Shown: positions 3,749 through 16,903 of the stretch, piece by piece
How the letters are laid out: every line of letters begins with the position of its first letter
How positions within the stretch are numbered: position 1 is the stretch's first letter
The notes under the pieces: generated by a model
Seen by the model: the letters and a program-made list of their open reading frames with translations, nothing else
Database searches by the model: none
What the model was told of the DNA's origin: nothing
NCBI GenBank assembly: GCA_902826945.1
Contig: CADEGS010000081.1
Span: forward strand, 1-16,903
Direction of reading: 5' to 3'
Length of the DNA: 16,903 nucleotides
Source of the DNA: an uncultured bacterium
Lineage (GTDB): Bacteria > Planctomycetota > UBA1135 > GCA-002686595
Program-made: the position numbers and the translations under genes

Positions 3749-3752
3749 CCTC
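3749..3752 (-). promoter_or_regulatory. Ribosome binding site GAGG deciding a GTG start
   Basis: GAGG on the minus strand sits 8 nt before the GTG at 3740 and overlaps the TGA of the gp48-like gene (TGAGG). It supports this GTG as the fibre start and suggests re-initiation after gp48. Confidence 0.5.
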
Positions 3753-4458
3753 ACAGGGAACCGAAGATCACGACGAGCCCGGGGGGGACGTCGAAGACGA
3801 GCTCGTGCGGGGGCGGGTAGAGCTCGCTCCAGGGACCAGGCGCGCTCGGCGCGAGGTCGTAGACCACGAACGAGCGCGTGTGCGCGGGGCGCCACGAGGC
3901 GAGCTCGCACTCGAGGAGCTCGTTCGACCAGTCGGTGATGCGCTGGCCGCACACGGCGTCGCCGGCGTCGGCGTAGAACGGCGACGCCGCCGGCGCGTGC
4001 ACGTAGAAGGTCCAGACCGACTCCTCGCCCCACAGCCCGTCGCCGCACGCGGAGATCCCGCACCGGAACGGCCGCGGCTCGAAGAGCTCGACCTCGAAGC
4101 CGAGCGAGAGCGCGAGCGCGACGAAGTCGGAGGACGACTGCTCGACCGAGCGCCGCAGGCGGGCGAGGATCGCGACGCGCCGCAGCGAGAGGTTCAGGAG
4201 GGGCGCGGGCAGGCACTCGCCTGGCAGGCCGAGCGCGCGCTCCCACTCCCCGACGAGCTCGAAGGTCGAGCGGGGGTCGGCCTCGTCCACGAGGTCGAGC
4301 ACGCGCAGCTCGACGTCGGCGAAGGCCGCCGCGAGCGCCTCGAGCAGCCGCTCGAGGTTCGACCCGGGGACCGGTCGCAGCAGGCGGCCGCTCGGGAGCA
4401 GGTGCCCGAGCACGCGCGCGCTGCTCTCGACGTCGGCCTCGGTGCGGAGCCTGGTCAT
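3751..4458 (-). CDS. Mu gp48-like baseplate protein (DUF2313 family), 235 aa
   Basis: Start ATG at 4458 overlaps the baseplate-J stop by 4 nt (ATGA). The N-terminal half has the gp48/YmfQ-like arrangement: LGHLLPSGRLLRPVPGSNLERLLEALAAA is the initial helical region (LLP.G.....GS.L..LL.ALA), followed by a VDEADPRSTFELVGEWERALGLP segment, which matches the family signature DP.T...LL..WE...GLP. The protein caps the baseplate wedge next to gp46 and gp47 and probably links to the tail fibres, in line with the fibre gene immediately downstream. The C-terminal part contains cysteines around FRCGISACGDGLWG and CGQRITDWSNELLECEL, as in family members. Length is close to the family norm. Confidence 0.85.
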   Translation of the reverse strand: MTRLRTEADVESSARVLGHLLPSGRLLRPVPGSNLERLLEALAAAFADVELRVLDLVDEADPRSTFELVGEWERALGLPGECLPAPLLNLSLRRVAILARLRRSVEQSSSDFVALALSLGFEVELFEPRPFRCGISACGDGLWGEESVWTFYVHAPAASPFYADAGDAVCGQRITDWSNELLECELASWRPAHTRSFVVYDLAPSAPGPWSELYPPPHELVFDVPPGLVVIFGSL

Positions 4459-5516
4459 AGCGCGGAGAACGTCGGCGTGCCGAGCACGTGCAGCTCGCCC
4501 GTCGCGGCCGTCACGTCGGCCGCGGGGACGGAGAGGTCGTGGTCGAACTCCCCGAAGGCGTTCGAGATCGCCGCGCGCACGTGCGAGAGCAGCACGGTGC
4601 GGCCGGGGCCGCCCTCGGCGCGCAGCAGGTCGACCAGCGCGTCCTCGATCGCCTGGCGCACGTCGAGCGTGTCGGGCGAGATCGCGACCTCGGGGTCGAG
4701 CGGGAGCGCGGTCGGCGCGAAGACGTGCAGCACGACACCGACCGGGCGACGCGCCTCGACGTAGGCCTCGACCTCGTCCACCTTCGCGCCGCCGGGGATC
4801 GGCCCGCCGGGGTCGTCGTCCACCGCGAAGGACAGCCCCACGTGGCCGAGCTGCCCGAGGTAGACCGGGTGCGCCCACGCGCGCGTCACGCCGGGGACCT
4901 CGAGCGCCCACTGGACGTAGACCTCCGCGCCCTGGGGGGGCGCGCGCAGGCGCCGCAGCACGCGCTCGCGCAGCTCCTCGTCGCTCTCGGCGTCGGCCCC
5001 GAGGTCGAACCCCCCGGCCCCGGCCTCGGCGGCCGAGGTGAGCCCGAGCGATGGGGGGTTCAGCGTCAGCGCCGTCCCGCCGTCCACGTTGGCGGCCGCG
5101 CCGGGCTCGACCGCCTGCGCCGCGACCTCCGCCTGCAGGCTCGGCAGCGTCACGGTGCCGCTCGCCGTGGTCTCGTACTCGACGCCGTCGGCGCGCCGCG
5201 CGCGCAGGCCCACGGGCACGACGGCGCCCTCGGTCCCGCCCACCACGATGGTGCCGACCGCGCGCGCCGCGGGCTTGCGCAGGATCCCGTAGCGGTCGGC
5301 CGCGCGCTCGAGATAGACCTGGTCCGCGCTCTCGGGGAAGAGCTGGTCCGCGATCGTGACGAGGTGCCCGTGCAGGTGGTGCGTGAGCGCCCCCTGCGCC
5401 TGCGCCAGGGCCCCGACGAGCGAGCGGGGGAGCAGCGGGCCGGCGCCGATGCGCTGCTCGACCTCGAGCAGGGCGCGGGCGCGGAGGTCGGCGAGGCTCG
5501 GGCGAACGAAGGACAT
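4455..5516 (-). CDS. Baseplate J-like wedge protein (Mu gp47)
   Basis: The product is 353 aa, the usual size for Mu gp47/P2 J. Start ATG at 5516 with GAGGG about 8 nt upstream, overlapping the end of gp46. The N-terminal helix segment (about 1-75) includes the ADQLFPESADQVYLERAADRYGI pattern, which matches the family signature (.P..A...YLER.A...GI). A beta-rich core (85-150) has VPVGLRARRADGVEYETT and PGAAANVDGGTALTL, then ESDEELRERVLRRLRAPPQG and a domain beginning VPGVTRAWAHPVYLGQLG. These are hallmarks of the baseplate J family, which forms the wedge around the hub. The stop overlaps gp48 by 4 nt. Confidence 0.92.
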   Translation of the reverse strand: MSFVRPSLADLRARALLEVEQRIGAGPLLPRSLVGALAQAQGALTHHLHGHLVTIADQLFPESADQVYLERAADRYGILRKPAARAVGTIVVGGTEGAVVPVGLRARRADGVEYETTASGTVTLPSLQAEVAAQAVEPGAAANVDGGTALTLNPPSLGLTSAAEAGAGGFDLGADAESDEELRERVLRRLRAPPQGAEVYVQWALEVPGVTRAWAHPVYLGQLGHVGLSFAVDDDPGGPIPGGAKVDEVEAYVEARRPVGVVLHVFAPTALPLDPEVAISPDTLDVRQAIEDALVDLLRAEGGPGRTVLLSHVRAAISNAFGEFDHDLSVPAADVTAATGELHVLGTPTFSAL

Positions 5517-5529
5517 CGGGCAGGCCCTC

Positions 5530-5997
5530 TCAGCCGAAGAAGACGCGCAGGCGCGCGCCGGGGACGGAGTAGTCGCGGGCGGCCGCCGCGCGCCATGCCG
5601 CGTCGTAGCCGCGCGCGGTGCCGCGCACGATGCGCACCCCGAGCTCGAGGCGCGAGCCCTCGCGGAGCAGGACCTCGACCTCGACCGAGGAGGCGATCCG
5701 CCTCGTGACGAGCCAGCGGAGCGCGTCCTCGACGTGCCGGCGGTACTCGGCCGCTACCGGCGCCGAGAGGCCCCGGTTCTCGAGCAGCCAGCCCTTCGAC
5801 CCCCAGCGGTCGCCGGGCCGGTCGGCCCACCAGCCCCGCACGTTCCCGCCCTCGCCGACCTCGCCCAGGTCGGCGCGCGCGTCGGTGAAGAGCGAGAGCA
5901 GGACCGCCGTCTCGAGCCCGTCGTCGCGGCCCAGGTCGCCCCCCACGAGCTCGAGGTCGAGGCCCGCCGCGCCGTTCACCAGGGAGAGGTCCGTCAT
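5530..5997 (-). CDS. Mu gp46-like baseplate wedge protein, 155 aa
   Basis: Start ATG at 5997 overlaps the PAAR gene stop by 4 nt. The sequence has the GP46 family signature GLETAVLLSLFTDARAD, then a Trp-rich GGNVRGWWADRPGD....GSKGWLL segment, then an amphipathic C-terminal half (AEYRRHVEDALRWLVTRRIASSVEVEV) comparable to gp25-like wedge proteins. In Mu, gp46 sits between spike gp45 and wedge gp47 and helps assemble the baseplate; the gene order here is the same apart from the inserted PAAR gene. Length is normal for the family. Confidence 0.88.
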   Translation of the reverse strand: MTDLSLVNGAAGLDLELVGGDLGRDDGLETAVLLSLFTDARADLGEVGEGGNVRGWWADRPGDRWGSKGWLLENRGLSAPVAAEYRRHVEDALRWLVTRRIASSVEVEVLLREGSRLELGVRIVRGTARGYDAAWRAAAARDYSVPGARLRVFFG

Positions 5998-6275
5998 GGG
6001 AAAGCCGCGCGGAGGAGCGTAGCGGAACCGCTCGCGACATGCCCGCAGGAGGCGGCCGCGCCGGCGACGCACACGGGCACCCCCGCGGTGCGCAGGAGGG
6101 ACGTCCCCTCGACGATCACCGCCGCGTCGTGGCCCCCCGAGCCGTGGTCGGCGACCGCGTCCCCGACCTGCGCGAGCGGCACCCCGAGGACGCGCAGGAG
6201 CGTGCTCCCCGGCCCGGTGATGATCCCGCCGCCGACCAGGTCCACCCCGACCAGGGAGCCAGCCGCGGCGGCCAT
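5994..6275 (-). CDS. PAAR-motif spike-tip protein, 93 aa
   Basis: Start ATG at 6275 shares its A with the TGA of gp45 (TGATG). The protein consists almost entirely of PAAR-type glycine turns: GDAVADHGSGGH at about 38-49, AAVIVEGTSLLRTAGVPV at 51-68, then ASCGHVASGSATLLRA at 75-90. H44 (or H49), C77 and H79 are candidate metal ligands for the cone-shaped tip that PAAR proteins place on VgrG or phage spikes. The N-terminal stretch GSTLLRVLGVPLAQVGD resembles the second half, an internal repeat. Encoded directly after the spike, it most likely caps gp45 and sharpens the puncturing device. It carries no effector extension, so a purely structural tip is expected. Confidence 0.82.
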   Translation of the reverse strand: MAAAAGSLVGVDLVGGGIITGPGSTLLRVLGVPLAQVGDAVADHGSGGHDAAVIVEGTSLLRTAGVPVCVAGAAASCGHVASGSATLLRAAFP

Positions 6276-6949
6276 CAGTCGAGGTCCAGCCCGGCCGCCC
6301 CGAAGGAGGCGTCGACGCCCGAGGTCGAGATCGTCGCGTCGGCGCCCGAGACCTGGACCGAGCCGGAGGCCTCGAGCTCCGCCGAGGCGTCGTCCAGGCC
6401 GAGCCGCGTCGAGCCCTTGAGGAGCTCGAGGGAGTCCGAGTCGCCGAGCACGCGAGTCGTGGAGCCCGCGCGCAGGTCGAGCAGCGAGGAGCCGAGGAGC
6501 TGCATGTTCTGGCCCGTCACGACCAGGCCGCTCGGGCCGAGCGTCAGCGTCGAGTCGGGCGTCACGACCTCGAGGCGGTCGCACTCGATCCGCACGACGC
6601 GCCCGGCCTTGAGCGTCACGCGCGCGCCGGCGTCGTTGTAGAGCGTGACCTCGCCGGGCCCGAGGTCCCGCGGCCGGAAGCGGCGGTCCTCACTCGCGAT
6701 CGCGACCACGTGCTCGCGCCCCGCCCCGTCGAGCGCCGCGTACACGAACTCCGCACCCGGGCGCGCGCGGCCGGTGAAGCCGTAGTGCGAGAACTCCTCG
6801 ACCCCGTTCAGGAGCTCGCCGGCGAGCGCCTCGAGCTGGAGCTCGCGGGCGAGCCCGGTCTCGCGCACGGCGCGCACGATCGCGCGGCCGACCATGCCGA
6901 GCACGCGCCGGCGGAGCGGCGCGATCCAGCGCTCGAGCGCGCGCACCAT
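6275..6949 (-). CDS. Mu gp45-like baseplate spike protein (baseplate assembly protein V)
   Basis: The product is 224 aa from ATG 6949; an in-frame GTG at 6961, two bases after the gp44 stop, would add four residues. The N-terminal helix (1-35) is followed by the gp45 OB-fold signature: LAGELLNGVEEFSHYGFTGR, PGAEFVYAALDG.GREHVVAIASEDRR and GPGEVTLYNDAGARVTLKAG. From about 118 to 224 the chain becomes repetitive beta structure rich in Ser/Thr/Asp/Gly/Leu, consistent with a trimeric beta-helix needle. The only histidines are H55 and H80, both in the OB region, so the C-terminal HxH metal site known from the Mu spike tip is absent. The PAAR gene immediately downstream may supply the tip. Confidence 0.88.
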   Translation of the reverse strand: MVRALERWIAPLRRRVLGMVGRAIVRAVRETGLARELQLEALAGELLNGVEEFSHYGFTGRARPGAEFVYAALDGAGREHVVAIASEDRRFRPRDLGPGEVTLYNDAGARVTLKAGRVVRIECDRLEVVTPDSTLTLGPSGLVVTGQNMQLLGSSLLDLRAGSTTRVLGDSDSLELLKGSTRLGLDDASAELEASGSVQVSGADATISTSGVDASFGAAGLDLD

Positions 6950-6963
6950 GCGGGCGTCCACCG

Positions 6964-8166
6964 CTACCCGTCCCCCTGCCCGAGGTCCTCGAGCTCGCCG
7001 GTCCCGACCAGGCCCTCGGCGTCGCCCGCCTTCCACTCCTCGAGCAGGCCCTCGAGCGCGCGGTCCGCCTCGGTCAGCTCGGCGAGCCGGTCGAGCGCGT
7101 CGGGGGGCACGAGCGAGAGCCGCACGGTGTAGCCCTGGTCTGGGTCGATGAGGTACTGCGCCGCCTGGACGAGGAAGCGCCCCGAGAGGTTCCAGGGCGC
7201 CAGGTCGACGCGGGGCGTCACGTTGACCCGCCAGAGCTTCCCCGCCCTGGGGTCGGTGTGCCAGCCCGCGAGCTCGACCTCGACGCCCGTCCCCCGCGAG
7301 CGCCGCACGACCGCCTCCCACTCGGCGAGGTCGCGCGCGCTTTGCAGGTCGACCGGCCGCTGCGCGACGACGAGGAGCGGCCGGTAGCGCCGCACGGAGG
7401 GGTCGGCGGCCTCGCCCTCGACGTGCGCCACCGCCTCGCCCCAGGCGAGGTCGTCGCCGGGTCCCTGCCCGCGCACCACCACGCGCGAGAAGCGGTCGAC
7501 CTGGGAGAGCCGCAGGCGTGAGCCGACGACGTTCGAGGGGGGCTCGCCGTAGAGGTCCAGGATGCGCGCGCCGGGGTCGCCGCCGAGCCCCCCGACGGTC
7601 AGCTCGAGGGCGCCGTCGCCGCGCCCGTGGAGCAGCACGCCGCGCTGGCGCGCCAGGCGGTCGAGGGCTTCCCACGAGCTCTCGCCCGGCTGCACGCGGA
7701 AGAGCCGGAACCGCTCGTTCAGGTGGTAGGCGGGCCCGAGCTGGCGGGCGTTGAGCTCGTCGACGAGCTCGATCCCGTGCGGCGCGAGCAGCGCGCGCGC
7801 GATGTCGGGGAGCGCCTCGTCCCGGAACTCGCTCGGGGCGTCGAGCGGGGAACAATCGACCAGGTCGCCCGTCATGGAGCGCCCCTCGAGGACGACGGTC
7901 GTCCCCTGCCGCAGGTCCGAGGAGCCCTCGAGCGTCTCCACGTGCCCGCGCGCGAGGAGCTCGCGGCCGACGCGCAGCGAGACCTCCTGGCCGAGCTCGA
8001 AGGGGAAGGGCCGCGGGGGGACGAGCTCGAGCCGGAACGTCACCGAGCCCGCGTCGAGCGAGTCGAGGACGCTCGCGCGCAGGAAGCGCCGGAAGGTGAG
8101 CCCGCCGACCTCGAGCACGAGGTCGAGGGGCGAGAGGCCGAGGTCGGGCTCGCGGGTGAGGCTCAC
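6964..8166 (-). CDS. Baseplate hub protein, Mu gpP/gp44-like
   Basis: The product is 400 aa. GTG start at 8166, 4-nt overlap (GTGA) with the upstream N-like gene. The N-terminal beta domain (about 10-110) contains VLEVGGLTFRRFLRASVLDSLDAGSVTFRLEL and LGQEVSLRVGRELLARGHVE, as in gp44/gpD-type hub proteins. Then come RSMTGDLVDCSPLD (the R..T..LVDCS signature of this family), a helical SWEALDRLARQRGVLLHGRGDGALEL segment, and a final domain with WRVNVTPRVDLAPWNLSGRFLVQA. The trimeric hub sits under the tail tube and carries the spike encoded next. The C-terminal Glu/Gly-rich tail beyond about 370 has no visible domain. Confidence 0.88.
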   Translation of the reverse strand: MSLTREPDLGLSPLDLVLEVGGLTFRRFLRASVLDSLDAGSVTFRLELVPPRPFPFELGQEVSLRVGRELLARGHVETLEGSSDLRQGTTVVLEGRSMTGDLVDCSPLDAPSEFRDEALPDIARALLAPHGIELVDELNARQLGPAYHLNERFRLFRVQPGESSWEALDRLARQRGVLLHGRGDGALELTVGGLGGDPGARILDLYGEPPSNVVGSRLRLSQVDRFSRVVVRGQGPGDDLAWGEAVAHVEGEAADPSVRRYRPLLVVAQRPVDLQSARDLAEWEAVVRRSRGTGVEVELAGWHTDPRAGKLWRVNVTPRVDLAPWNLSGRFLVQAAQYLIDPDQGYTVRLSLVPPDALDRLAELTEADRALEGLLEEWKAGDAEGLVGTGELEDLGQGDG

Positions 8167-9386
8167 GAGCGGCCGCCGGTCAAGACCTGCAGCACGGCGG
8201 GCAGGCGGGCGGGGTTCACGGCGCCGTTCCGCTCGGCGAGGTCCTCCTCGAGGCCGAGGTCGTCGAAGAGCCGATAGGCGACGACCACGGCGGGCAGGCT
8301 CTCGCCCAGGTCCACGACCTCGAGGCGCGGCAGGTCCTCGAGCGGCGGGGGGACCGACGCGCGCAGCGCGGCGGAGAGCCCCTGCAGGCCGTCGAAGGTC
8401 GCCGGGTCGGCGCGCGCGGCGATCTCGTCCACGCGCTCGAGCAGCTCGTCGCGCGCGGCCTGCGCGTCCTCGAGCGTCTCCCAGGGAACGTCGGCGGCCG
8501 CGACCACGGCGCCGGCGGCGCAGGCGGCCCCGAAGAGGTCGTCGACCAGCGTCGCGTTCCGGTGCGCGGCGCGCGACTCCGCGCCGCGCCCGGCCGGCAC
8601 GAGCGCGCGCGCCTCGGCGAGGAGCGTGGTGTACGCGCGCCAGGCCTCGAGGGGCGAGCTCGCGGCGTTGCGCACGCCGCGCGCGAGCTCGAGGACCGAG
8701 CTCGCCAGGTTCGCGGGCGCGAGCGCGAGCTCCTCGACCAGCCCGATCGTGCTCGTCGCCTGGAACTCGAGCAGCTCGACCTTCGCCTGCGCGCCGTGCA
8801 GGGAGTGCAGGACCGAGCGCACCGACCCGACCACGCCCGAGAGCGCGCCGCGCGAGGCCTCGCGCAGGCTCTCGGGCCCCTCGACCGCGAGCCCCTCCTC
8901 GAGGTCGGCCGCCCCGGCGGCCTCGAGCGCCGCGGCCGCGGCGGATGGCTGCGCGGAGGTCCCGCGCGTCTGGTCCGCCTCGACGCTCGAGGCCTCCTCG
9001 GGGACCTCGACCAGGCGGAGCTCGAAGCGGGCCATGCGCGTGGCGCGCGAGTCCTCGGCGAGCCGCCAGCCCTCGACCAGCACGCGCCGCACCCCGAGCC
9101 AGGGGTGCCGCAGGATGAGCCCCAGGCGGAAGGGCGCCCCGACGCTGCGCTTGCCGAGCGCCGCGGTGAGCCGGTCGCGCTGCAGGTCGTAGTCGGGCCC
9201 GAGCACGTACGCCGAGAGCGCGTGGCGCACGGCGCGCCGGCCGAGCTCCTCGGCCTGGGGCAGGTCGCGCGAGGGGAACTCGTGCACGACCACGGTCCGG
9301 CCGCCCTCGAGCTCGTAGCGGTCGGACAGGAACGCCACGCCGGCGATCTGCGCCGGGAGCAGCCGCTCGCGCCAGGGTTCAGCCAC
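8163..9386 (-). CDS. DNA circularisation N-terminal domain protein, Mu gpN-like
   Basis: The product is 407 aa. GTG start at 9386 overlaps the tape measure stop by 8 nt. Residues 1-125 carry the DNA_circ_N pattern: WRERLLPAQIAGVAFLSDRYELEGGRTVVVHEFP, AYVLGPDYDLQRDRLTAAL and HPWLGVRRVLVEGWRLAEDSRATRMARFELRLVE, which resembles a LysM/T4 gp53-like tail-end domain. The rest (about 135-400) is Ala/Leu/Glu-rich and helical without a clear family motif. Despite the family name, proteins at this position are baseplate or tail-tip components that link tube, tape measure and hub. The position between tape measure and hub matches Mu N exactly. Confidence 0.87.
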   Translation of the reverse strand: MAEPWRERLLPAQIAGVAFLSDRYELEGGRTVVVHEFPSRDLPQAEELGRRAVRHALSAYVLGPDYDLQRDRLTAALGKRSVGAPFRLGLILRHPWLGVRRVLVEGWRLAEDSRATRMARFELRLVEVPEEASSVEADQTRGTSAQPSAAAAALEAAGAADLEEGLAVEGPESLREASRGALSGVVGSVRSVLHSLHGAQAKVELLEFQATSTIGLVEELALAPANLASSVLELARGVRNAASSPLEAWRAYTTLLAEARALVPAGRGAESRAAHRNATLVDDLFGAACAAGAVVAAADVPWETLEDAQAARDELLERVDEIAARADPATFDGLQGLSAALRASVPPPLEDLPRLEVVDLGESLPAVVVAYRLFDDLGLEEDLAERNGAVNPARLPAVLQVLTGGRS

Positions 9387-11181
9387 CGGCGCCCACCCCC
9401 GCGAGCGAGACCCCGGCGTCGAGCTCGACCGGGGCGCCGCCGGCGTAGTCGTAGCGGCTCACGCGCGACCCGGCGGGGAGGTTCGGGAGCTCGATCCGCA
9501 CCGTCGAGCTCGGCGCGGCGAGCGGGCCGGAGCGGGAGAACTCGGCGCGCCGCGCCGCCACGGCCGCGGCGTCCCCGCCGAGGACAACCCGCGAGAGGTT
9601 GGTGCCGCGTCGCGGCGGACCGACGCCGCCCAGGCCGAGAACCGCGTCCTGCACGAGCGTGCTATGCCCGCCCCCGACCACGCGCTCGGCCGCGCGCGCG
9701 ACCCGGTCCGCGACCGACTCGGCGCCCTCGGCGATCGCCGCCCAGGTGCGCCCGAGGAAGCCCCGGAGGTCGTCCCAGCGCGTGTAGATCACCGCGGCGA
9801 GCGAGCCGAGCGCGCCGACGACGAGGAGGACCTGCCCGAATGGATTCGTGAGCAGGAAGGGGAGCACACCGAGCAGGCCGCGCGCGAGGCCGGGCAGCCC
9901 CGTGACGACGAGCCAGGACACGGGGCCCCGCAGGTAGCGCAGGACCGACCACAGGCCCCCGAACGCGACCGTGAGCTGCCCGACGGTGAAGATCAGGGGC
10001 CCCGCGACCGCCGCGGCGAGGCCCAGGTTCGCGACGAGGCGCAGCGTGCCGGGCGAGGTGTCGCCCAGGCGCTCGACGACGCCGGTCAGCCCGCGCACGA
10101 GCTTGGTCCACTCCTCGAAGAGGCCGGAGCGCTGCACGAAGCGGATCTGCAGCGTCTCGAGCGCGCCGCCCAGGTTCTCGAGCGCGCCGGTCGCGCCGCC
10201 CATGCGCGCCGCGGCGATCTCGGCCGCGCGCCCGATGCCCTGCTGGTCGTCGTCCCCGAGCCGGCGCGCGAGGTCGCGGATCTCGGGCACGTGCTCGACC
10301 GCCTGCAGGACCGCGCGGCCGGCCTCCTGCCCGAAGATCCGCAGGACCTGCCCCGAGCTCGCGCCGCGCGAGCGCAGGAGCTCGAGCAGCCCGACGAAGC
10401 TGCGCAGGTTGCCGCGGTCGTCGAGGACCTGGTCACGCGCGATGCCGAGCTCGGTGAAGGCCTTCGCCGCGTCGGGCGTCACCTTGAGGATGCCCGCCAC
10501 CGCGGCCGCGTACGCGCGGCCGCCGCGCGAGCCCTCGAAGCCGCGCTCGCCGACGACGGCGAGCAGGGCCGCCGTCTCGGTGAAGGGCTGGCGCTGCTGC
10601 GACGCGAGGCCGCCCGCGTAGGAGAAGGCCTCGCCGAGGCCCTCGATCGTGACTTTCGCGCGCGTCGCCGCGCCGGCGAGCACGTTCGCGACGAAGATCG
10701 ACTCGCCGGCCTCGAGGCCGTAGCCCTTGAGGACCTCTGTCAAGATCCCCGCCGCGCTCTCGGCGTCGGTGAACGCGGCCGCCGCGGTCGCGACCACGCC
10801 GGGCGTCGCCGCGAGGATCTGGTTCACGCGGTAGCCGGCGAGCGCGAGCTTGGTCTGCGCGCCCGCGACCTGCGTCGCGGAGAAGATCGACGCGGCGCCG
10901 AGGTCGAGCGCCTGGCCCTCGAGCGCGGCGTACTCCTCGCGCGTGGCGCGCGCGACGACGCTCGAGCGGATGAGCTGGCCCTCGAGCTGCGCGGCCGAGC
11001 GCAGCGCGAGGCCCCCAGCCGCGACGAGCGGCGCGGTGACGCCGAACGTGAGGTTGCGGCCGACGCCGGCGATCTTCGCGCCGACCCGCGAGAAGGCGGA
11101 GTCGACCCTGCCCACCGTCGCGAGCAGCCCGCGGTCGGCCGCGGTGAAGACGACCTGCAGGGGGAACGTCCCGAGCGCCAT
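9379..11181 (-). CDS. Tail tape measure protein, 600 aa
   Basis: The N-terminal 350 residues match the TP901-type tape measure core: KIAGVGRNLTFGVTAPLVAAGG, then AAQLEGQLIRSSVVARATREEY, VAGAQTKLALAGY, EVLKGYGLEAGESIFVANVLAGAA, TIEGLGEAFSYAGGLA and RGGRAYAAAVAGILKVTPDAAKAF. Hydrophobic segments at about 395-420 and 435-475 resemble the membrane-inserting regions of other tape measures. The C-terminal 120 residues are Gly/Ala/Arg-rich and end GVSLAGVGAGG. It sits inside the tail tube and sets tail length; at the usual rule of about 1.5 angstrom per residue, 600 residues predict a tail near 90 nm. ATG 11181 has no strong ribosome binding site and follows a 119-nt structured leader. Confidence 0.92.
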   Translation of the reverse strand: MALGTFPLQVVFTAADRGLLATVGRVDSAFSRVGAKIAGVGRNLTFGVTAPLVAAGGLALRSAAQLEGQLIRSSVVARATREEYAALEGQALDLGAASIFSATQVAGAQTKLALAGYRVNQILAATPGVVATAAAAFTDAESAAGILTEVLKGYGLEAGESIFVANVLAGAATRAKVTIEGLGEAFSYAGGLASQQRQPFTETAALLAVVGERGFEGSRGGRAYAAAVAGILKVTPDAAKAFTELGIARDQVLDDRGNLRSFVGLLELLRSRGASSGQVLRIFGQEAGRAVLQAVEHVPEIRDLARRLGDDDQQGIGRAAEIAAARMGGATGALENLGGALETLQIRFVQRSGLFEEWTKLVRGLTGVVERLGDTSPGTLRLVANLGLAAAVAGPLIFTVGQLTVAFGGLWSVLRYLRGPVSWLVVTGLPGLARGLLGVLPFLLTNPFGQVLLVVGALGSLAAVIYTRWDDLRGFLGRTWAAIAEGAESVADRVARAAERVVGGGHSTLVQDAVLGLGGVGPPRRGTNLSRVVLGGDAAAVAARRAEFSRSGPLAAPSSTVRIELPNLPAGSRVSRYDYAGGAPVELDAGVSLAGVGAGG

Positions 11182-11198
11182 CGCCGGCCAAGCCTAGC

Positions 11199-11232
11199 GG
11201 CCGGGGAGCGCTGGACCGAGCGCGCCCCGGCC
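11199..11232 (-). promoter_or_regulatory. GC-rich hairpin in the leader of the tape measure gene
   Basis: Arms 11199-11211 and 11220-11232 form an 8-bp stem (GGCCGGGG with CCCCGGCC), one A/G mismatch, then a 4-bp GCGC stem and an 8-nt loop. On the late transcript it forms just before the tape measure start (11181). Its 11220-11232 arm overlaps the arm used by the longer inverted repeat 11216-11289, so the two structures exclude each other. No U-tract follows. Confidence 0.6.
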
Positions 11233-11289
11233 TTCGCCGATGTCGTGGCCGGGGTTCAGGAGGACCCGATCCAGCCGGGGCGCGCTCGG
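11216..11289 (-). promoter_or_regulatory. 16-bp inverted repeat competing with the downstream hairpin
   Basis: Positions 11216-11231 and 11274-11289 are perfect reverse complements (16 bp) with 42 nt between them. In transcript order this arm pair would form first, and the arm at 11199-11211 could then displace it. This 1:2 versus 2:3 pairing is the layout of an attenuator or translation switch. Function is inferred, not shown. Confidence 0.6.
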
Positions 11290-11300
11290 CGGGGGCGATC

Positions 11301-11830
11301 CTACCCGTCTTCCGCGGCGCGGAGCTTGTCCAGCCGCTCGAGCACGGCGACCCACCCGGCCAGGTCCTCGAAGTCCCGCTCGAGCCACCAGCCGAGGCCG
11401 CCCCCCAGGCGCTCGGCCAGCGAGGCGACGATCAGCCGCCAATCACTCGGGAGCGCTGCAAAAAATAGGTCGCGAGCGCGGCCACGCGGCCGACGTCCCC
11501 CTCCTCCAGGCGGTTCAGGAGCGAGAGCGGCTGCCCGACCATCGTCGAGGCGACTTGGAAGAGCAGGCCGAAGTCGAGACCGCGGCCGAAGGGGAAGGCC
11601 GCGACGTGCGAGGGCCGCACGCGGGCGGGCCACTCGAGCTCGGCGAGCATGGGGGCGCCGTTCGAGTCGCGCACCGGGAACTCGAGGCGCAGGAGGCGCT
11701 TCGCCGGGTCGTAGTAGGTCGCGAGCGAGGGCTCGGCCTCGCACAGGCGGGCGAGGGCCGGGTCGGCCGGGGAGTCCTCGACGGGGACGGCGTCGGGGTG
11801 CGAGCTCGGGTCGGGGGCGGGCGTCTTCAT
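11301..11830 (-). CDS. Tail assembly chaperone, frameshifted long form (about 176 aa)
   Basis: This product shares the first 124 codons with the short chaperone, then shifts -1 at T TTT TTG (11465-11459) and continues 52 codons to TAG 11301-11303. The -1 frame reads AALPSDWRLIVASLAERL, then GGGLGWWLERDFEDLAGWVAVLERLDKLRAAEDG. This is protein-like, Trp-rich and helical, and similar in size and character to the small T-domains of tail chaperones. Long-tailed phages conserve a short chaperone G and a frameshifted G-T fusion between the tube and tape measure genes; the fusion binds tape measure protein and tube subunits during tail assembly. This is exactly that position. Confidence 0.78.
11432..11830 (-). 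CDS. Tail assembly chaperone, unshifted short form (Mu gp41-like), 132 aa
   Basis: Starts at ATG 11830, ending TGA 11432. Residues 1-30 are acidic and disordered-looking (PDPSSHPDAVPVEDSPADPA). The core at about 45-110 has RLLRLEFPVRDSNGAPMLAELEWPARVRPSHV and a helical LLFQVASTMVGQPLSLLNRLEEGDV segment typical of the Mu-like tail assembly protein family (strand pair with a charged turn, then helices around a conserved LxxLxxxDV). It should keep tube or tape measure protein soluble before tail assembly. There is no purine-rich ribosome binding site, and the start follows the strong hairpin at 11871-11906. Nearly all ribosomes end here; the remainder shift to give the long form. Confidence 0.82.
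   Translation of the reverse strand: MKTPAPDPSSHPDAVPVEDSPADPALARLCEAEPSLATYYDPAKRLLRLEFPVRDSNGAPMLAELEWPARVRPSHVAAFPFGRGLDFGLLFQVASTMVGQPLSLLNRLEEGDVGRVAALATYFLQRSRVIGG
11459..11465 (-). promoter_or_regulatory. Programmed -1 ribosomal frameshift site T TTT TTG
   Basis: Read 5'-3' on the minus strand the in-frame codons are TAT TTT TTG, giving the X XXY YYZ heptamer with X=Y=T and Z=G. The zero frame stops 9 codons later (11432) while the -1 frame stays open for 52 codons. The run of six A (plus strand 11460-11465) is the longest A/T homopolymer I see in this GC-rich window. Downstream on the transcript GGCGG...TCGCC can form a small 5-bp hairpin about 18 nt past the heptamer. Upstream, GGAGGAGGGGG lies about 30 nt away. 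Confidence 0.8.
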
Positions 11831-11870
11831 GGTCGCGAGGGTGCACTCTGCCCGGCCAGGTCGAAGGAAG

Positions 11871-11906
11871 GCGCGCGCCGCCCGGCCGGGAGCGGGCGGC
11901 GCGCGC
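11871..11906 (-). promoter_or_regulatory. Strong hairpin just after the tail tube stop
   Basis: Perfect 14-bp inverted repeat: arms 11871-11884 and 11893-11906, loop of 8 nt at 11885-11892. It begins 6 nt after the tail tube stop codon (11913-11915). On the minus strand the stem is followed by CTTCCTTCGA, only a weak pyrimidine tract. It may trim readthrough or protect the 3' end of the tube message. Confidence 0.7.
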
Positions 11907-11912
11907 GCCTGG

Positions 11913-12284
11913 TCACGCGGCGAGCCGCTGGATCGATGTGCCGCAGAACTTGACCGTGTACGTGCCATTCGACGAGTCGTACTCGCCGCTGCCGGCCTGC
12001 CAGGCGTCGCGCATGCTGGCGGTGACGCCGTTCGCGAGCTCGGCCGTGACCTGGAGCCCGGTGCCCTCGAGGATCGCCTGCACGTCGAGGCTCGGGTCGT
12101 CCACGAAGGCGCCCTCGATCGAGGGCTCGCCCGGCTGCTCGGAGAAGCCGTGGATCGCGTCGGGCCCCTTGACCGTCTCGCGCTGGGGCGAGCCCCACGT
12201 GATCTTCCACGTGCCGAAGCACCGCATCACCTCGCCGTTCACCTTGACGAAGAGACGCCCGCCGACTCGGTTGTTTGCTGCCAT
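11913..12284 (-). CDS. Tail tube protein, Mu gpM-like, 123 aa
   Basis: The N-terminal pattern RVGGRLFVKVNGEVMRCFGTWKI is the classic start of the Mu/P2-like tail tube family, followed by RETVKGPDAIHGFSEQPGEPSIEGAF, DLDVQAIL-like SLDVQAILEGTGLQVTAELANG and DAWQAGSGEYDSSNGTYTVKF. These match the family strands and the conserved ELANG...RDAW.AG turn. Hexameric rings of this protein form the inner tube of the contractile tail. ATG at 12284 follows the sheath stop by 35 nt and has only a weak GGAAA ribosome site. It is followed by a hairpin, like other high-copy proteins in this operon. Confidence 0.93.
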   Translation of the reverse strand: MAANNRVGGRLFVKVNGEVMRCFGTWKITWGSPQRETVKGPDAIHGFSEQPGEPSIEGAFVDDPSLDVQAILEGTGLQVTAELANGVTASMRDAWQAGSGEYDSSNGTYTVKFCGTSIQRLAA

Positions 12285-12319
12285 TGGAGAGGGTTTCCGG
12301 GGGGACGGGGGGCGCCGGC

Positions 12320-13780
12320 CTACAGCACGAAGTTGACCTTGGCGCCGAGAATGAGGAACTGGTTCACGAGGTTGGGCTCGAGCACGACGTCGAGCCGGCT
12401 CGGGTTGGTCGCGTTGCGCTCGACGAGCAGCGCCGCCTTGAAGGCGTCGAGGTCCTCGAGGAGCCCCTGCCGCTGCCACTCGGCCGCCAGCGAGATCACG
12501 AGCCCGCGCGCCTCCGCCGGCGTGACGACGACCTGCCCCGGCCCGAACGCGGCCGAGCTGTTGGCGAGCTTCGCGCGGGGGTAGCGCAGCGCGAACTCCT
12601 GGCGCAGGTCGTAGCGGAACCGCGAGAGCGTGTAGAGCGTGGCGACGTCGAGAAAACTCGCGTCGTCCGCGCCCGCGGGGGACGTCTGGTAGGTCGTGAT
12701 GACGCGCTCGAGCTGCACGACGCCCGCCACGACGGTGAAGGTCGAGATCCCGTCGAAGAGCAGCGCGTCGCGCTCGGCGTACGTGAAGGCGTCGCGCTGC
12801 ACCGGGCCGAGCAGCCCCGGCACCGGGAGGCGGGCGAAGCCGCGCGCCGGGTCCGCGCTCGCGGCCGCGGCGACCTGCGCGGCGACGCCGGCGGCCCACT
12901 CCCAGGGCGGCGCCGGCGAGAGGTCGTGCCCCATGACCGAGACGTGCCGGCTGTTTTTGGCCGCGCCGTAGGTGAGGAGCGCCGACTGCGTCGCGCGCCG
13001 CGCGAGGATCGCGACGCCCTCGATCTGGCGGTCCGCGCGGAAGCGGCTCGCGAGCTCGAGGTCGAGGGCCGCGTGCGTCGCGTCGTCCGAGTAGCCGACG
13101 GCCAGCGTGTTGAACTGCTCGTCCCCGAGCACCGCGAAGACCGCCGCCACGTCGGGGTTCGCGCTGCCGCCGCTCATCGCGGTGACGGTGGCGGAGAGGC
13201 CGATCGGCAGGAACTCGTCCGCGAAGAGGTTCAGGCGGAGGTCGAGGCCGTTGCCCTCGCTGCCCTTGTTGCGCGCCGTGAGGTTGACCGAGCCGGCGAC
13301 GCCGGCGGCGGTCGCGTAGCGGTCGGGGTCGGCCTGGATCGCCGCGGCGACCGCGGTCGCGACCTGCGTCGCGGTGAGCCCCGCCGTCACGGCGACGCGG
13401 TAGCGCCGGCCGCCGACGTAGAGCGCGACCGTGCCCGCCTGCGAGGGGCTGCCGGAGAAGGCGACGCTGCCGGTCGCGGCGACCGAGCCCGCGGCGTCGT
13501 CCTGCGCGATGAACGTGACCGGCGTGTTCCGGTTCCCGAGGAACCAGAGTTTCGCCATGCCGTGGATCACGGAGCCGCGCCCGAAGAACGCCGCGACCTC
13601 GTCGGCCGTCGTCGCCGTGCGCGGGAGCAGCTCGGCGACCTGCCCCGTCGAGAGGCGGTTGCCGACCACGAGCACGCGGTGCGGCTGCACGCCCGAGTCG
13701 AGCGCCGCGCGCGTCGCGTCGAACTCGACGGAGAAGAACGGGACCCGGCTCGCGACCGGGATCTCATTGAAGTCAACCAT
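12320..13780 (-). CDS. Contractile tail sheath protein, Mu gpL-like, 486 aa
   Basis: The protein starts MVDFNEIPVASRVPFFSVEFD, the recognisable beginning of Mu-type sheath proteins (I......RVPG...EFD), followed by HRVLVVGNRLSTGQVA and TADEVAAFFGRGSVIHGMA. A central variable beta domain (about 105-200) contains VGGRRYRVAVTAGLTATQVATAVAAAI. The conserved C-terminal part has ATLYTLSRFRYDLRQEFALRYPRAKLAN and ARGLVISLAAEWQRQGLLED, typical of sheath subunits, with the last strand (LGAKVNFVL) likely used for subunit linking. ATG at 13780 overlaps DUF2635 by 8 nt and has AGGAG 8 nt upstream. Length is close to Mu L (about 495 aa). Confidence 0.94.
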   Translation of the reverse strand: MVDFNEIPVASRVPFFSVEFDATRAALDSGVQPHRVLVVGNRLSTGQVAELLPRTATTADEVAAFFGRGSVIHGMAKLWFLGNRNTPVTFIAQDDAAGSVAATGSVAFSGSPSQAGTVALYVGGRRYRVAVTAGLTATQVATAVAAAIQADPDRYATAAGVAGSVNLTARNKGSEGNGLDLRLNLFADEFLPIGLSATVTAMSGGSANPDVAAVFAVLGDEQFNTLAVGYSDDATHAALDLELASRFRADRQIEGVAILARRATQSALLTYGAAKNSRHVSVMGHDLSPAPPWEWAAGVAAQVAAAASADPARGFARLPVPGLLGPVQRDAFTYAERDALLFDGISTFTVVAGVVQLERVITTYQTSPAGADDASFLDVATLYTLSRFRYDLRQEFALRYPRAKLANSSAAFGPGQVVVTPAEARGLVISLAAEWQRQGLLEDLDAFKAALLVERNATNPSRLDVVLEPNLVNQFLILGAKVNFVL

Positions 13781-14024
13781 CGTCGCGGCTCCTGCGCTTC
13801 TCGGCGCGCTCCGCGCGCTCCTCGGGGACGATCTCGACGTCGCCGGCGTTCAGGCGCCGGCGCCAGTACGTGGAGAGCTGGACGAGCTCGCCGTCCTCGC
13901 TCAGGTAGCGCCCGCGCTGCGCGGGGTGCGCGACGCGCAGGCGCTGGTGCCGCGCGCCGGCGAGGTCGGTCCAGGGCTCGCACGCGCGCGGGCGGAGCCG
14001 GACCTGTTCGGGCATGGTGGTCAT
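13773..14024 (-). CDS. DUF2635 family protein (Mu gp38 position), 83 aa
   Basis: ATG at 14024 lies in the ATGA shared with the terminator stop; ATG at codon 4 is an alternative. The C-terminal half RYLSEDGELVQLSTYWRRRLNAGDVEIV carries the DUF2635 signature (G..V.....YW.RRL..GDV). Members sit directly before the tail sheath gene in Mu-like phages and have no firm function, so a tail-assembly role is assumed from position. The C-terminal tail is highly charged (EERAERAEKRRSRDDG), and the ribosome site for the sheath gene lies within it. Confidence 0.82.
   Translation of the reverse strand: MTTMPEQVRLRPRACEPWTDLAGARHQRLRVAHPAQRGRYLSEDGELVQLSTYWRRRLNAGDVEIVPEERAERAEKRRSRDDG
13789..13793 (-). promoter_or_regulatory. 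Ribosome binding site AGGAG for the sheath gene
   Basis: AGGAG on the minus strand lies 8 nt before the sheath ATG (13780), inside the end of the DUF2635 gene. It is among the best Shine-Dalgarno matches in the late operon, fitting a high-copy structural protein. Confidence 0.6.
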
Positions 14025-14593
14025 GGGTCGAGCTCGATTGTGGTCTCGAAGCCGGGGGGAGGGAAGTCGAACGCGAAGCCGAGCTCGCGCAGAGCGCTCG
14101 CCTGGTCGTCGAGCGCCTCGTCGGTCTGCGGGTCGAGGTAGGCGACCGACCAGCGCAGGCGGCCCCACCCGAGGAGCGGCTCCCCCTGCGCGTCGCGGTC
14201 GGCGTCGAAGCCGGCGGGCCCCGTGCGCTCGTCGTCCTGGATCTCGACCGCGCCGATGAGGCGAGGCAGGAGGCGGTGCCGGCGCAGGACCTGGCGGGCC
14301 TGCTCGAGCACGTCGTCGACGAGGTCCTGGTGCCGCAGTCCCGCGGCGAGCTGGTCCTCGTTCAACGGGTCCGCGACGACCTCGATCCCGAACTCGGCGA
14401 CGGCGAGGTAGACGAGCGGCGAGTCGACCACGGCCGCGGGGGGCTGCTCGCCGAGCACGTAGACGCACAGCGCGGGAAGCTGGCGCACGTGCACGCGCTC
14501 GGCGCGGTCGTCGAAGACGCGGTCCTCGCAGTAGGTCGCGCCGGTCAGGAGGTTGACGAGCTCCTTTCGGATCGCCTTGCGCGCGAGGCTCAC
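14021..14593 (-). CDS. Tail terminator-like protein (lambda gpU / Mu gp37 position), 190 aa
   Basis: GTG start at 14593 overlaps the preceding stop by 4 nt. The sequence follows the gpU-like layout: RKAIRKELVNLLTGAT, then VFDDRAERVHVRQLPALCVYVLGEQP, a Ser/Pro turn (VVDSPLVYLAVAEFGIEVV) with the IEV strand, a helix with DDVLEQARQVLRR, and a late W..AYL strand (LRWSVAYLD). Proteins of this fold form the ring that stops tail tube growth and joins tail to head. At 190 aa it is longer than lambda gpU (131 aa), mainly through an insertion of about 40 residues around AVEIQDDERTG and a C-terminal tail. Its position before gp38 and sheath matches Mu K. Confidence 0.72.
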   Translation of the reverse strand: MSLARKAIRKELVNLLTGATYCEDRVFDDRAERVHVRQLPALCVYVLGEQPPAAVVDSPLVYLAVAEFGIEVVADPLNEDQLAAGLRHQDLVDDVLEQARQVLRRHRLLPRLIGAVEIQDDERTGPAGFDADRDAQGEPLLGWGRLRWSVAYLDPQTDEALDDQASALRELGFAFDFPPPGFETTIELDP

Positions 14594-14952
14594 GGCGCGG
14601 CGCCCTCGAGCTGGCCGACGAGCCGCACCATGCCGTCGCCGTCGTGCTCGACGTCGGACACGCGGTAGCGGTTCCCGCGCGCGACGAAGCGCCAGGCGCG
14701 GCGCCCGTCGTGCATCCGGTAGAGCTCCTCGGCGTCGACGGGCAGGTCCGCGAGCCGCACGAGCAGGCGGGGCTTCGCGACCGCGACCGAGACGTCTCCG
14801 CCGGAGGGGAAGAACGAGTCCTCGCGCTCGGTGAAGATCCCCGCGACCTCGAGCGGCGCGGTGCCGTCGGCGGGCTCGAGCGTGGCGGGCTCCGCGAGGT
14901 CGGAGCCCGCCACGGCGTCGTTGAGCGAGCGCATCATGTCGTCCCAGCTCAC
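14590..14952 (-). CDS. Head completion / head-tail joining protein (lambda FII-like, Mu gp36 position), 120 aa
   Basis: GTG start at 14952 with no clear ribosome site, after a hairpin-containing gap. The protein starts with a short helix (MSWDDMMRSLNDAVAG), followed by LEVAGIFTEREDSFFPSGGDVSVAVAKPRLLVRLADLP and GRRAWRFVARGNRYRVSDVEHDGDGMVRLVGQLE. This strand order (short helix, GIF.... then SV....P.L.VR..D, then Y.V.....DG.G...L.L) is that of lambda FII-type adaptors that prepare filled heads for tail joining. Overall identity to FII is low, so the call rests on pattern plus gene order between the cement and terminator genes. Confidence 0.68.
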   Translation of the reverse strand: MSWDDMMRSLNDAVAGSDLAEPATLEPADGTAPLEVAGIFTEREDSFFPSGGDVSVAVAKPRLLVRLADLPVDAEELYRMHDGRRAWRFVARGNRYRVSDVEHDGDGMVRLVGQLEGAAP

Positions 14953-14960
14953 GGCAGGAG

Positions 14961-14994
14961 CCGGGGGCCGCGCCGCGAGGCGCGCGCGCCCCGG
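14961..14994 (-). promoter_or_regulatory. Hairpin after the capsid cement gene
   Basis: Outer arms 14961-14966 (CCGGGG) and 14989-14994 (CCCCGG) and inner arms 14969-14974 and 14979-14984 (CGCGCC with GGCGCG) form 6+6 bp with a 2x4 internal loop and a 4-nt loop. It starts 10 nt after the cement stop (15005-15007) and precedes the head completion GTG (14952). No U-tract follows. Confidence 0.55.
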
Positions 14995-15004
14995 CGGCGC
15001 GGTC

Positions 15005-15337
15005 TTAGAACGAGCTCCGCATGCGCACGGTGCAGGTCGCGACGCCGTTCGCCTTCGCCTGCGTGAAGACCCCGGCGTCGACGTTGGCGCCCGCCGTGGT
15101 CGTCATGCGGCGGTTCCCGACGTCCCAGTAGGCCTTCGCGCCCTGCGCGGGCGTGTCGGTCGAGAGAGCGGCGAACTGGAACTCGCCGCCGACGACCAGG
15201 ACGCACCCGGTGTCGCCGCTCGCGTAGTCCTGGAGCGCGACGCCGACGGTCACGCCGATGAGCAGCGGCTCGCCGCCGTGGATCGTCGCGCCGGCGGTGA
15301 AGAGGATTCGGTCGCCGCTCGAGCGGAAGTTTTGCAT
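15005..15337 (-). CDS. Capsid cement / decoration protein (DUF2190 family), 110 aa
   Basis: ATG at 15337 with GAGGA about 9 nt upstream. The segments GDRILFTAGATIHGGEPLLIGVTVGVALQDYASGDTGCVLVVGGEFQFA and DTPAQGAKAYWDVGNRRMTTT match the DUF2190 pattern (AG..I..G.........GVA......G......G.......A.....GA..YWD......T). Family members coat the capsid as trimers at expansion and stabilise it; the small all-beta size and the position right after the major capsid gene agree. The chain ends VRMRSSF. It is expected in hundreds of copies, and its gene is bracketed by hairpins on both sides. Confidence 0.85.
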   Translation of the reverse strand: MQNFRSSGDRILFTAGATIHGGEPLLIGVTVGVALQDYASGDTGCVLVVGGEFQFAALSTDTPAQGAKAYWDVGNRRMTTTAGANVDAGVFTQAKANGVATCTVRMRSSF

Positions 15338-15381
15338 GGGTTCAGGTCCTCGGGCCGGCGCAGGTGGTCGTGGGTCGGGTG

Positions 15382-15426
15382 GCGGGCCGCCGCGCGCGCT
15401 GCGCCACTCGGCGCGCGGCGGCCCGC
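15382..15426 (-). promoter_or_regulatory. 16-bp perfect hairpin just after the major capsid stop
   Basis: Arms 15382-15397 and 15411-15426 are perfect reverse complements (16 bp, all G/C) around a 13-nt loop at 15398-15410. The stem begins 7 nt after the capsid stop codon (15434-15436). The minus strand after the stem reads CACCCGACCC, so it lacks the T-run of an intrinsic terminator. mRNA 3'-end protection or partial attenuation is more likely. Confidence 0.72.
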
Positions 15427-15433
15427 GGGGAGA

Positions 15434-16903
15434 TCAGGAGCCGGTCGAGCGGTACCAGGCGACGAACTCGGTCACGGCGAGCGCGACTTCGTGGATCGCC
15501 CGGAACTCCATGCCGAGGACCTCCCAGCCCTCGCGCATGGAGAGCTGCGGCCCCTCCTGGCCGTTCAGGTAGGCCCGCTCGAAGACCGAGACCTGCGAGG
15601 GGTTGGCGGTGCCGTACCACTGGACGGCCGAGGCCGCCTGCAGGCGCGCCTCGGAGATCACGCCCATGATCGACGAGCGCAGCGGGTTGGTGTGCGTCGG
15701 CGAGTCGGGGACGAGCGCCTCGAGCATCTGGCGCGCGACGACCTCGAGCGAGGGGGGCACGACGAGATACCCCATGTCGAGGTTGATGAACTCGCCGGCG
15801 AGGCCGGTCTGGTTGCGCATCGTCGAGAGCCACAGGTCGAGGCCCGTCGCGGCCGTGCCGATCGTGATTGCACCCGTCCCGACGTTCTTGTGCGTCGCGT
15901 GGAAGAGCGTGACGCCGTCGCCCAGGACGACGTTCCCGGTGACGAGACCCCAGGCGAGGTCCGACTCGAGGCGCGAGCTCGCGTTCCCGAACCGGCGGTT
16001 CACGTCGGACAGCGCCTCGAGGTCGTCGTTCACCATCGCTTGGCGGGTGAACGGCAGGATCCGCGAGTAGGTGCCGATCGCGTACGTCTCGGCCGAGTCG
16101 GGCAGGCTCCCGCGCGTAATCTCCGCGCCCTCGGGCACGAGCAGGAGGCTCGGGGCGTTGGCGAGCTGCACGCGCGTCATGGGCTTGAAGTCGCGCGCGA
16201 CGCGGGGCGTCACGAGCGGCTCGAAGGTCCGGCGCGACTCGTCGTAGCCCTGGCGCATGCTCTTGTTGGCGACGTTCGCGAGCAGCGCGGAGAAGTCGCT
16301 CGTGGCGATCCCCCCGCCGCTGCGCACGCCGACGTTGAGCGAGCGCGAGGCGCCGCCGACCAGGTCGACGCCCTGGTAGGTGCGCGAGAGCGCGGCCTCG
16401 AGGATGTCCTCGACGCCCATCTGCGCGGTGCGCACGCCGCGCGCCTGCAGGCAGCGCTCGGCGACCTCGACCAGGCGGCGGCCGACGAAGGCGCGGGAGT
16501 CTTCGCTCGGGCGCACGCGAGCGCCGAGCGCGCCCTCCGCGGTCCGCGAGCGCACGCCGCAGCGCACGTCGAAGGCCGCGTCGATCGCGCGCCAGAGCTT
16601 CTCCTCCTCCGCGGCGACGACGGTCGTCTGCGCGCGCACGGGCTGCGTCGCCTGGCGGGCGACCACGTGCTCGACCGCGGCCGCGCGAGCGGCGTCGAGG
16701 CTCGTGCCCTGCGCGATCAGGTTCGCGACCGTGTCGTCGGGGAGCTGCCACGAGCGCCCGAGCTCCTGGATCCCGAGCACGCGCGCGCGCTCGGCGCGGA
16801 TCCCCGCGACGTCGGGCGCCGTCGCCGTGGCGGCCGGCGCCGCCGGCGCGGCCGCGGCCGGCTGGCGCTGCGCCGCGCGCGCGGCCGCGGGCTCCGCCGG
16901 GGG
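15434..16903 (-). CDS. Major capsid protein, C-terminal part of a prohead protease/capsid fusion (partial at right edge)
   Basis: The frame is open to the window edge, so the gene starts outside. An internal GTG at 16780 is not the true start, because coding continues upstream as a Pro/Ala-rich linker and then GIRAERARVLGIQELGR. This linker plus ERARV..I..LGR motif is typical of proteins in which an HK97-type prohead protease is fused to the capsid protein. The capsid domain shows DFSALLANVANKSMRQGYDES, VPEGAEITRGSLPDSAETYAIGTYSRI and FTRQAMVNDDLEALSDV. Then come RRFGNASSRLESDLAWGLVTGN and VTLFHATHKNVG, and near the end VVPPSLEVVARQMLEALV. All are HK97-fold/Mu gpT-like signatures. After protease cleavage it would form the head shell. 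489 residues are visible. Confidence 0.88.
   Translation of the reverse strand, partial: PPAEPAAARAAQRQPAAAAPAAPAATATAPDVAGIRAERARVLGIQELGRSWQLPDDTVANLIAQGTSLDAARAAAVEHVVARQATQPVRAQTTVVAAEEEKLWRAIDAAFDVRCGVRSRTAEGALGARVRPSEDSRAFVGRRLVEVAERCLQARGVRTAQMGVEDILEAALSRTYQGVDLVGGASRSLNVGVRSGGGIATSDFSALLANVANKSMRQGYDESRRTFEPLVTPRVARDFKPMTRVQLANAPSLLLVPEGAEITRGSLPDSAETYAIGTYSRILPFTRQAMVNDDLEALSDVNRRFGNASSRLESDLAWGLVTGNVVLGDGVTLFHATHKNVGTGAITIGTAATGLDLWLSTMRNQTGLAGEFINLDMGYLVVPPSLEVVARQMLEALVPDSPTHTNPLRSSIMGVISEARLQAASAVQWYGTANPSQVSVFERAYLNGQEGPQLSMREGWEVLGMEFRAIHEVALAVTEFVAWYRSTGS

What the first reader, a model, noticed from the sequence alone, without database searches (positions are those of the whole stretch)
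11301..11830. Programmed -1 frameshift (T TTT TTG) in the tail assembly chaperone gene
Seen: an in-frame T TTT TTG heptamer at 11465-11459, zero-frame stop 9 codons later, and a -1 frame open for 52 protein-like codons to 11301, between the tube and tape measure genes. Established: long-tailed phages conserve a G/G-T frameshift at this position; G GGA AAG (lambda) is the best known, and Mu itself has been reported to use a -2 shift. Inference: this Mu-like phage uses an ordinary -1 shift on an all-T slippery site, in a genome where six A/T in a row is exceptional.
Basis: partly seen in the sequence, partly recalled or inferred. Interest (0 to 1): 0.72.

Follow-up and report, generated by a model that had tools for sequence, protein, structure and literature searches.

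The report
P2-style frameshift in Mu-like phage
This phage gene carries a run of six T's at which some ribosomes probably slip back by one base and make a longer tail-assembly helper protein; phage P2 is reported to use the same signal, so this is a well-supported new example of a known trick.

Summary
Confirmed, and ordinary in kind. On the minus strand, between tail tube (12284-11913) and tape measure (11181-9379), an ORF from ATG 11830 carries T TTT TTG (11465-11459) in the slippery phase. Frame 0 stops after 8 more codons; frame -1 runs 52 codons to 11301. It is the only run of six or more A/T in the 75% GC window. Third-base G+C moves from frame 0 to frame -1 at the site. Profiles built without the window find the chaperone in frame 0 (E 5e-7) and a P2 GpE-like domain in frame -1, starting right after the heptamer (E 5e-4). 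Of 150 loci classified, 75, window and P2 included, carry an in-phase T6 with an open -1 frame. P2 is reported to shift at TTTTTTG (PMC3091744, passages). So this Mu-like tail carries the P2 E/E+E' kind of chaperone, not Mu gp41. Side result: 30 of the 150 carry a Mu-type -2 site, and a sheath tree needs 10 changes of direction. Slippage itself was not tested; no stimulatory RNA structure was found.

The parts
11432..11830 (-). Frame-0 tail assembly chaperone (G/E-like), 132 aa
   Evidence: profile of 93 relatives without the window E 5.2e-7, best of 212 window ORFs; no Pfam hit of its own
11459..11465 (-). Slippery heptamer T TTT TTG, in phase
   Evidence: conserved in relatives
11301..11459 (-). 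Frame -1 extension (T/E'-like), 52 codons and stop; no ATG, GTG or TTG in its first 20 codons
   Evidence: profile without the window E 5.1e-4; codon usage; no Pfam hit of its own
11913..12284 (-). Tail tube protein
   Evidence: PF10618 E 2.7e-27
9379..11181 (-). Tape measure protein, 600 aa
   Evidence: PF10145 E 1.4e-28; phrog_1533 E 3e-62
12320..13780 (-). Tail sheath, anchor for finding relatives
   Evidence: PF04984 E 2.7e-22; phrog_165 E 5.1e-153

Best explanation
A programmed -1 ribosomal frameshift of the P2 E/E+E' kind. From the sequence: ribosomes that stay in frame make 132 aa and stop at TGA 11434-11432; a ribosome whose tRNAs sit on TTT TTG can re-pair one base back on TTT TTT and read 52 more codons, giving a 176-aa fusion ending in a P2 GpE-like T domain. 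Inferred from lambda G/GT: the short form binds the tape measure protein, the rarer fusion brings tail tube subunits to it, and their ratio matters for tail assembly.
For: In-phase heptamer and open -1 frame; change of coding frame at the site by third-base G+C and codon usage; both domains found by profiles that leave the window out; 75 of 150 classified loci have in-phase T6 with an open -1 frame, median 51 codons past the heptamer; 61 of 114 non-redundant ORFs against a shuffle maximum of 15; relatives match PF10109 in 46 of 50 and PF06528 in 31 of 49; the five nearest sheaths on the tree are all T6; same heptamer in P2. A passage of PMC3711429 reports 6 and 7% frameshifting for two genes of another phage tail-chaperone cluster.
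Against: No expression data. The window's own frame-0 protein, -1 piece and typed fusion have no significant Pfam hit, and the T match is weak (E 5.1e-4) with the usual FHF.PSEL motif degraded. Downstream folding is no better than shuffles (z -0.41 and -1.28); the only Shine-Dalgarno-like stretch (GGAGGAG 11507-11501) lies about 35 bases upstream. 49 of 144 loci lacked the strict heptamer rule with an open frame; these mostly have other sites.
Confidence: 0.93

Rival explanations
1. RNA polymerase, not the ribosome, slips on the T run and makes the fusion from an altered mRNA.
For: A homopolymer is present.
Against: A passage of PMC3711429 gives T runs longer than 8 for transcriptional slippage; here it is 6. 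T6 is kept in one codon phase in 61 ORFs against 10 and 0 in the others, which slippage by polymerase would not need; some relatives use mixed heptamers such as GGGAAAG.
Confidence: 0.03
2. The T domain is made on its own, or as part of a long -1 frame ORF, without frameshifting.
For: Frame -1 is open back to 11912, with a GTG at 11846; 30 of 75 T6 loci have a start codon in the first 20 codons of the extension.
Against: Upstream of the site frame -1 has third-base G+C of 0.37-0.60, unlike a coding frame here. The window and 44 other T6 loci have no ATG, GTG or TTG in those 20 codons.
Confidence: 0.02
3. Sequencing or assembly error: a wrong length of the T run splits one ordinary ORF.
For: Homopolymer in a single contig; the protein search lists one contig and one sequence for this gene.
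Against: The same arrangement stands in 75 of 150 loci, P2 among them.
Confidence: 0.02

Closest known systems
Phage P2 E / E+E' (PF10109 Phage_TAC_7, PF06528 Phage_P2_GpE)
   Same: Same heptamer in the same phase; same order tube, chaperone, tape measure; extension of similar length; relatives of the window match both Pfam families; no downstream hairpin reported in P2 (PMC3091744, passages) and none beyond shuffles here.
   Different: Sits in a Mu-type sheath/tube/baseplate region; the window's own protein is too diverged to hit the families alone; 75% GC.
Bordetella phage vB_BbrM_PBb002 (L161)
   Same: Closest annotated phage by sheath (46.7%) with GA[T TTT TTG] and a T domain in frame -1.
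   Different: Annotated as a plain chaperone CDS without a frameshift.
Phage Mu gp41 and its -2 frameshift (PF23746)
   Same: Same place between tube and tape measure; frame-0 chaperones are remotely alike (hhalign probability 92).
   Different: Site CGG GGG CGA, frame -2.
PaMx73 and D3112-like Pseudomonas phages
   Same: T TTT TTC and -1 proposed in PMC4378225 (passages).
   Different: Siphophages; heptamer far from the frame-0 stop (43 codons as printed).
Lambda G/GT
   Same: Working principle: two products of one gene in a set ratio (PMC5009743, passages).
   Different: Heptamer G GGA AAG as in the finding; not compared by sequence here.

Membership tests
Frameshifted tail assembly chaperones of long-tailed phages (G/G-T) | Gene between tube and tape measure | tested here: met
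Frameshifted tail assembly chaperones of long-tailed phages (G/G-T) | In-phase slippery site near the 3' end with an open shifted frame carrying a T domain | tested here: met
   T-domain match weak (E 5.1e-4)
Frameshifted tail assembly chaperones of long-tailed phages (G/G-T) | Both products made in a fixed ratio and needed for tails | not testable with these tools
   no expression data
P2 E/E+E' subtype | T TTT TTG, -1 | tested here: met
P2 E/E+E' subtype | PF10109 in frame 0 and PF06528 in frame -1 | tested here: inconclusive
   window alone: no hit; its aligned relatives 46 of 50 and 31 of 49 (window counted in both totals); leave-window-out profiles hit
Mu gp41 subtype | -2 shift at a G5C site into an open -2 frame | tested here: not met
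   frame -2 meets TGA at 11445-11443 and scores -104.9 bits; no PF23746 hit

The most novel reading that the evidence does not exclude
In Mu-type tails the frameshift is an exchangeable part: under related sheaths and tubes lie P2-type chaperones that shift -1 on T6, Mu-type ones that shift -2 on G5C, and forms that shift -1 on GGGGGAA; direction changed about ten times on the sheath tree, partly by swapping the gene and partly in place between homologous chaperones, so Mu's -2 is a recurrent solution and not an oddity. That different tailed phages use -1, -2 or +1 is already in print (PMC5009743, passages); the mixture within one tail lineage is the new claim.
Probability: 0.5. Interest if true: 0.5.

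Novelty: new member of a known kind. Interest (0 to 1): 0.3.

Why it matters
It adds a two-product gene that annotation tends to miss, shows the P2 signal kept in a 75% GC window with no other run of six A/T, and gives a set of relatives in which sites of both directions can be compared under the same tail genes.

Tried and rejected
Close relatives of the window's chaperone: one search found only itself. Single-protein scans of viral contigs with the window's sheath, its tube and P0003 confirmed none. P0003, the nearest sheath (72%), was not reached as DNA. No whole genome is held for the window.

In-frame fusion of L142 and L151, suggested, was rejected: my ORF rule had taken the wrong start; from the ATG both are T TTT TTC, -1. 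L028 was likewise corrected to the Mu type. The -1 label of L020 may rest on an indel in an assembled genome. Four of 150 loci stay unclassified by rule: L010 and L104 look like -2 variants, L152 like CTG GGG GAA cut by a contig end, L003 is unclear. The -2 labels rest on site, open frame and, for 21 of 30, PF23746; the T profile from the -1 loci matched in the -2 frame of only 17 loci, often weakly (E up to 2.6), and 14 loci gave no match.

Paper searches for the spaced heptamer, for the Mu-type site and for chaperones of Mu-like phages gave nothing beyond the papers cited (one search read my term without its underscores; only listings seen there). PMC3483164 (passage) holds GGGGGCGA only inside table entries for ribosome-binding sites.

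Full report
The observation. The minus strand has an ATG at 11830, codons TAT TTT TTG at 11467-11459 and a TGA at 11434-11432 after eight more codons. Frame -1 from the heptamer runs 52 codons to a TAG at 11303-11301. The neighbours are a Mu-type sheath (phrog_165), a tail tube protein (PF10618) and a tape measure protein (PF10145).

Evidence inside the window. T6 is the only run of six or more A/T in a window of 75% GC. TTT, TTG and TAT are rare in six other ORFs: TTT 1 of 69 Phe codons, TAT 1 of 33 Tyr codons, TTG 2 of 2,253 codons. Third-base G+C is 0.97-1.00 in frame 0 over the first seven 90-base steps, is mixed around the site and is 1.00 in frame -1 at 11440; codon usage over 11459-11304 scores +22.5 bits in frame -1 against -37.1 and -104.9 in frames 0 and -2. 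This places the change of coding frame at the heptamer without homology.

Relatives. The chaperone has no close relative, so I anchored on the sheath. One search found 1,392 sheath proteins (only the 7,997 candidates sharing most words were scored), listed 120, and I aligned 39, one being the window's own (A1). Of these 160, 158 had a tube gene; five ended before a chaperone ORF, two had no suitable ORF (L052, L092) and eight were duplicates. With the window this leaves 144.

Site conservation. Of 144 ORFs, 95 (window included) have an in-phase X XXY YYZ with Y = A or T and frame -1 open for at least 25 codons; T TTT TTG is the commonest, 44. After clustering at 60% identity, 61 of 114 ORFs hold TTTTTT in the slippery phase, 10 in phase 0, none in phase 1; 200 synonymous shuffles give mean 8.2 and maximum 15; the last 330 bases of the tube genes hold one TTTTTT in 37,620 bases. 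Loci were gathered by sheath similarity, not by the site. My rule for the frame-0 ORF erred in at least three loci (corrected); one search was run before that.

Domains. Profiles from 93 relatives without the window find its frame-0 ORF (E 5.2e-7) and its -1 ORF (E 5.1e-4), each the best of 212 window ORFs, the second starting at the first codon after the heptamer. Members of the alignments match PF10109 in 46 of 50 for frame 0 and PF06528, Phage P2 GpE, in 31 of 49 for frame -1; the window itself matches neither. P2's record marks a -1 site in E, with T TTT TTG in phase. PMC3091744 (passages) says that P2 shifts -1 at TTTTTTG and that P2 lacks downstream structure; here folding is no better than shuffles.

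Comparison with Mu. With six annotated records (PBb002, Mu, B23, phiKM1, PG1, P2) there are 150 loci: T6 75, other X XXY YYZ 25, GGGGGAA type 9 (six of them CTG GGG GAA), relaxed T sites 7, Mu-type G5C with an open -2 frame 30, unclassified 4 (corrections included). All 21 of the 30 -2 chaperones that I aligned match PF23746 Gp41_Mu. On a FastTree tree of 149 sheaths the direction needs 10 changes (seven rows left out of that count: five then unclassified, L028 among them, plus L142 and L151); the window lies in a starred set of 12, 11 T6 and one relaxed T site. Some changes look like gene swaps: L036 (T6) and L133 (-2) share 78% of the sheath but blastp finds no chaperone match at E 10 or below. 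Others look in place: L021 and L022 (-1) match L106 and L131 (-2) at E 1e-12 to 3e-11, and L020 (-1) is 58-59% identical to L106 and L045 (-2), though L020 could be an assembly indel. PMC4378225 (passages) proposes T TTT TTC and -1 for PaMx73 and calls Mu's -2 exceptional; PMC2628397 (passages) reports no site in KS10; PMC5009743 (passages) says tailed phages variously use -1, -2 or +1.

Verdict. A conserved P2-type -1 frameshift signal: a new member of a known kind. Expression was not tested.

Noticed in passing
L021, L022, L020, L106, L131, L045 (chaperone genes): Homologous chaperones with -1 sites (GGGGGAA) and -2 sites (GGGGGCG): a possible in-place switch of frameshift direction.
   Followed up: partly
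L036 against L133 and L048: Sheaths 71-78% identical but a T6 -1 chaperone in one and Mu-type -2 chaperones in the others, with no blastp match between them: a likely gene swap.
   Followed up: partly
L161:4965-5234: Bordetella phage PBb002 has GA[T TTT TTG] and a T domain in frame -1, but the record annotates only the short chaperone.
   Followed up: partly
L013, L034, L051, L099, L108, L122, L086: Seven loci keep a T domain in frame -1 but have only relaxed T-rich sites such as TCT TTT or GAT TTT CGG, without X XXY YYZ.
   Followed up: no
window 3751-16780, minus strand: The rest of the window looks like a Mu-like morphogenesis region: capsid (PF25209), cement (PF09956), head-tail attachment (PF05354), DUF2635, DNA_circ_N, GpP-like hub, Gp45, Gp48.
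   Followed up: no
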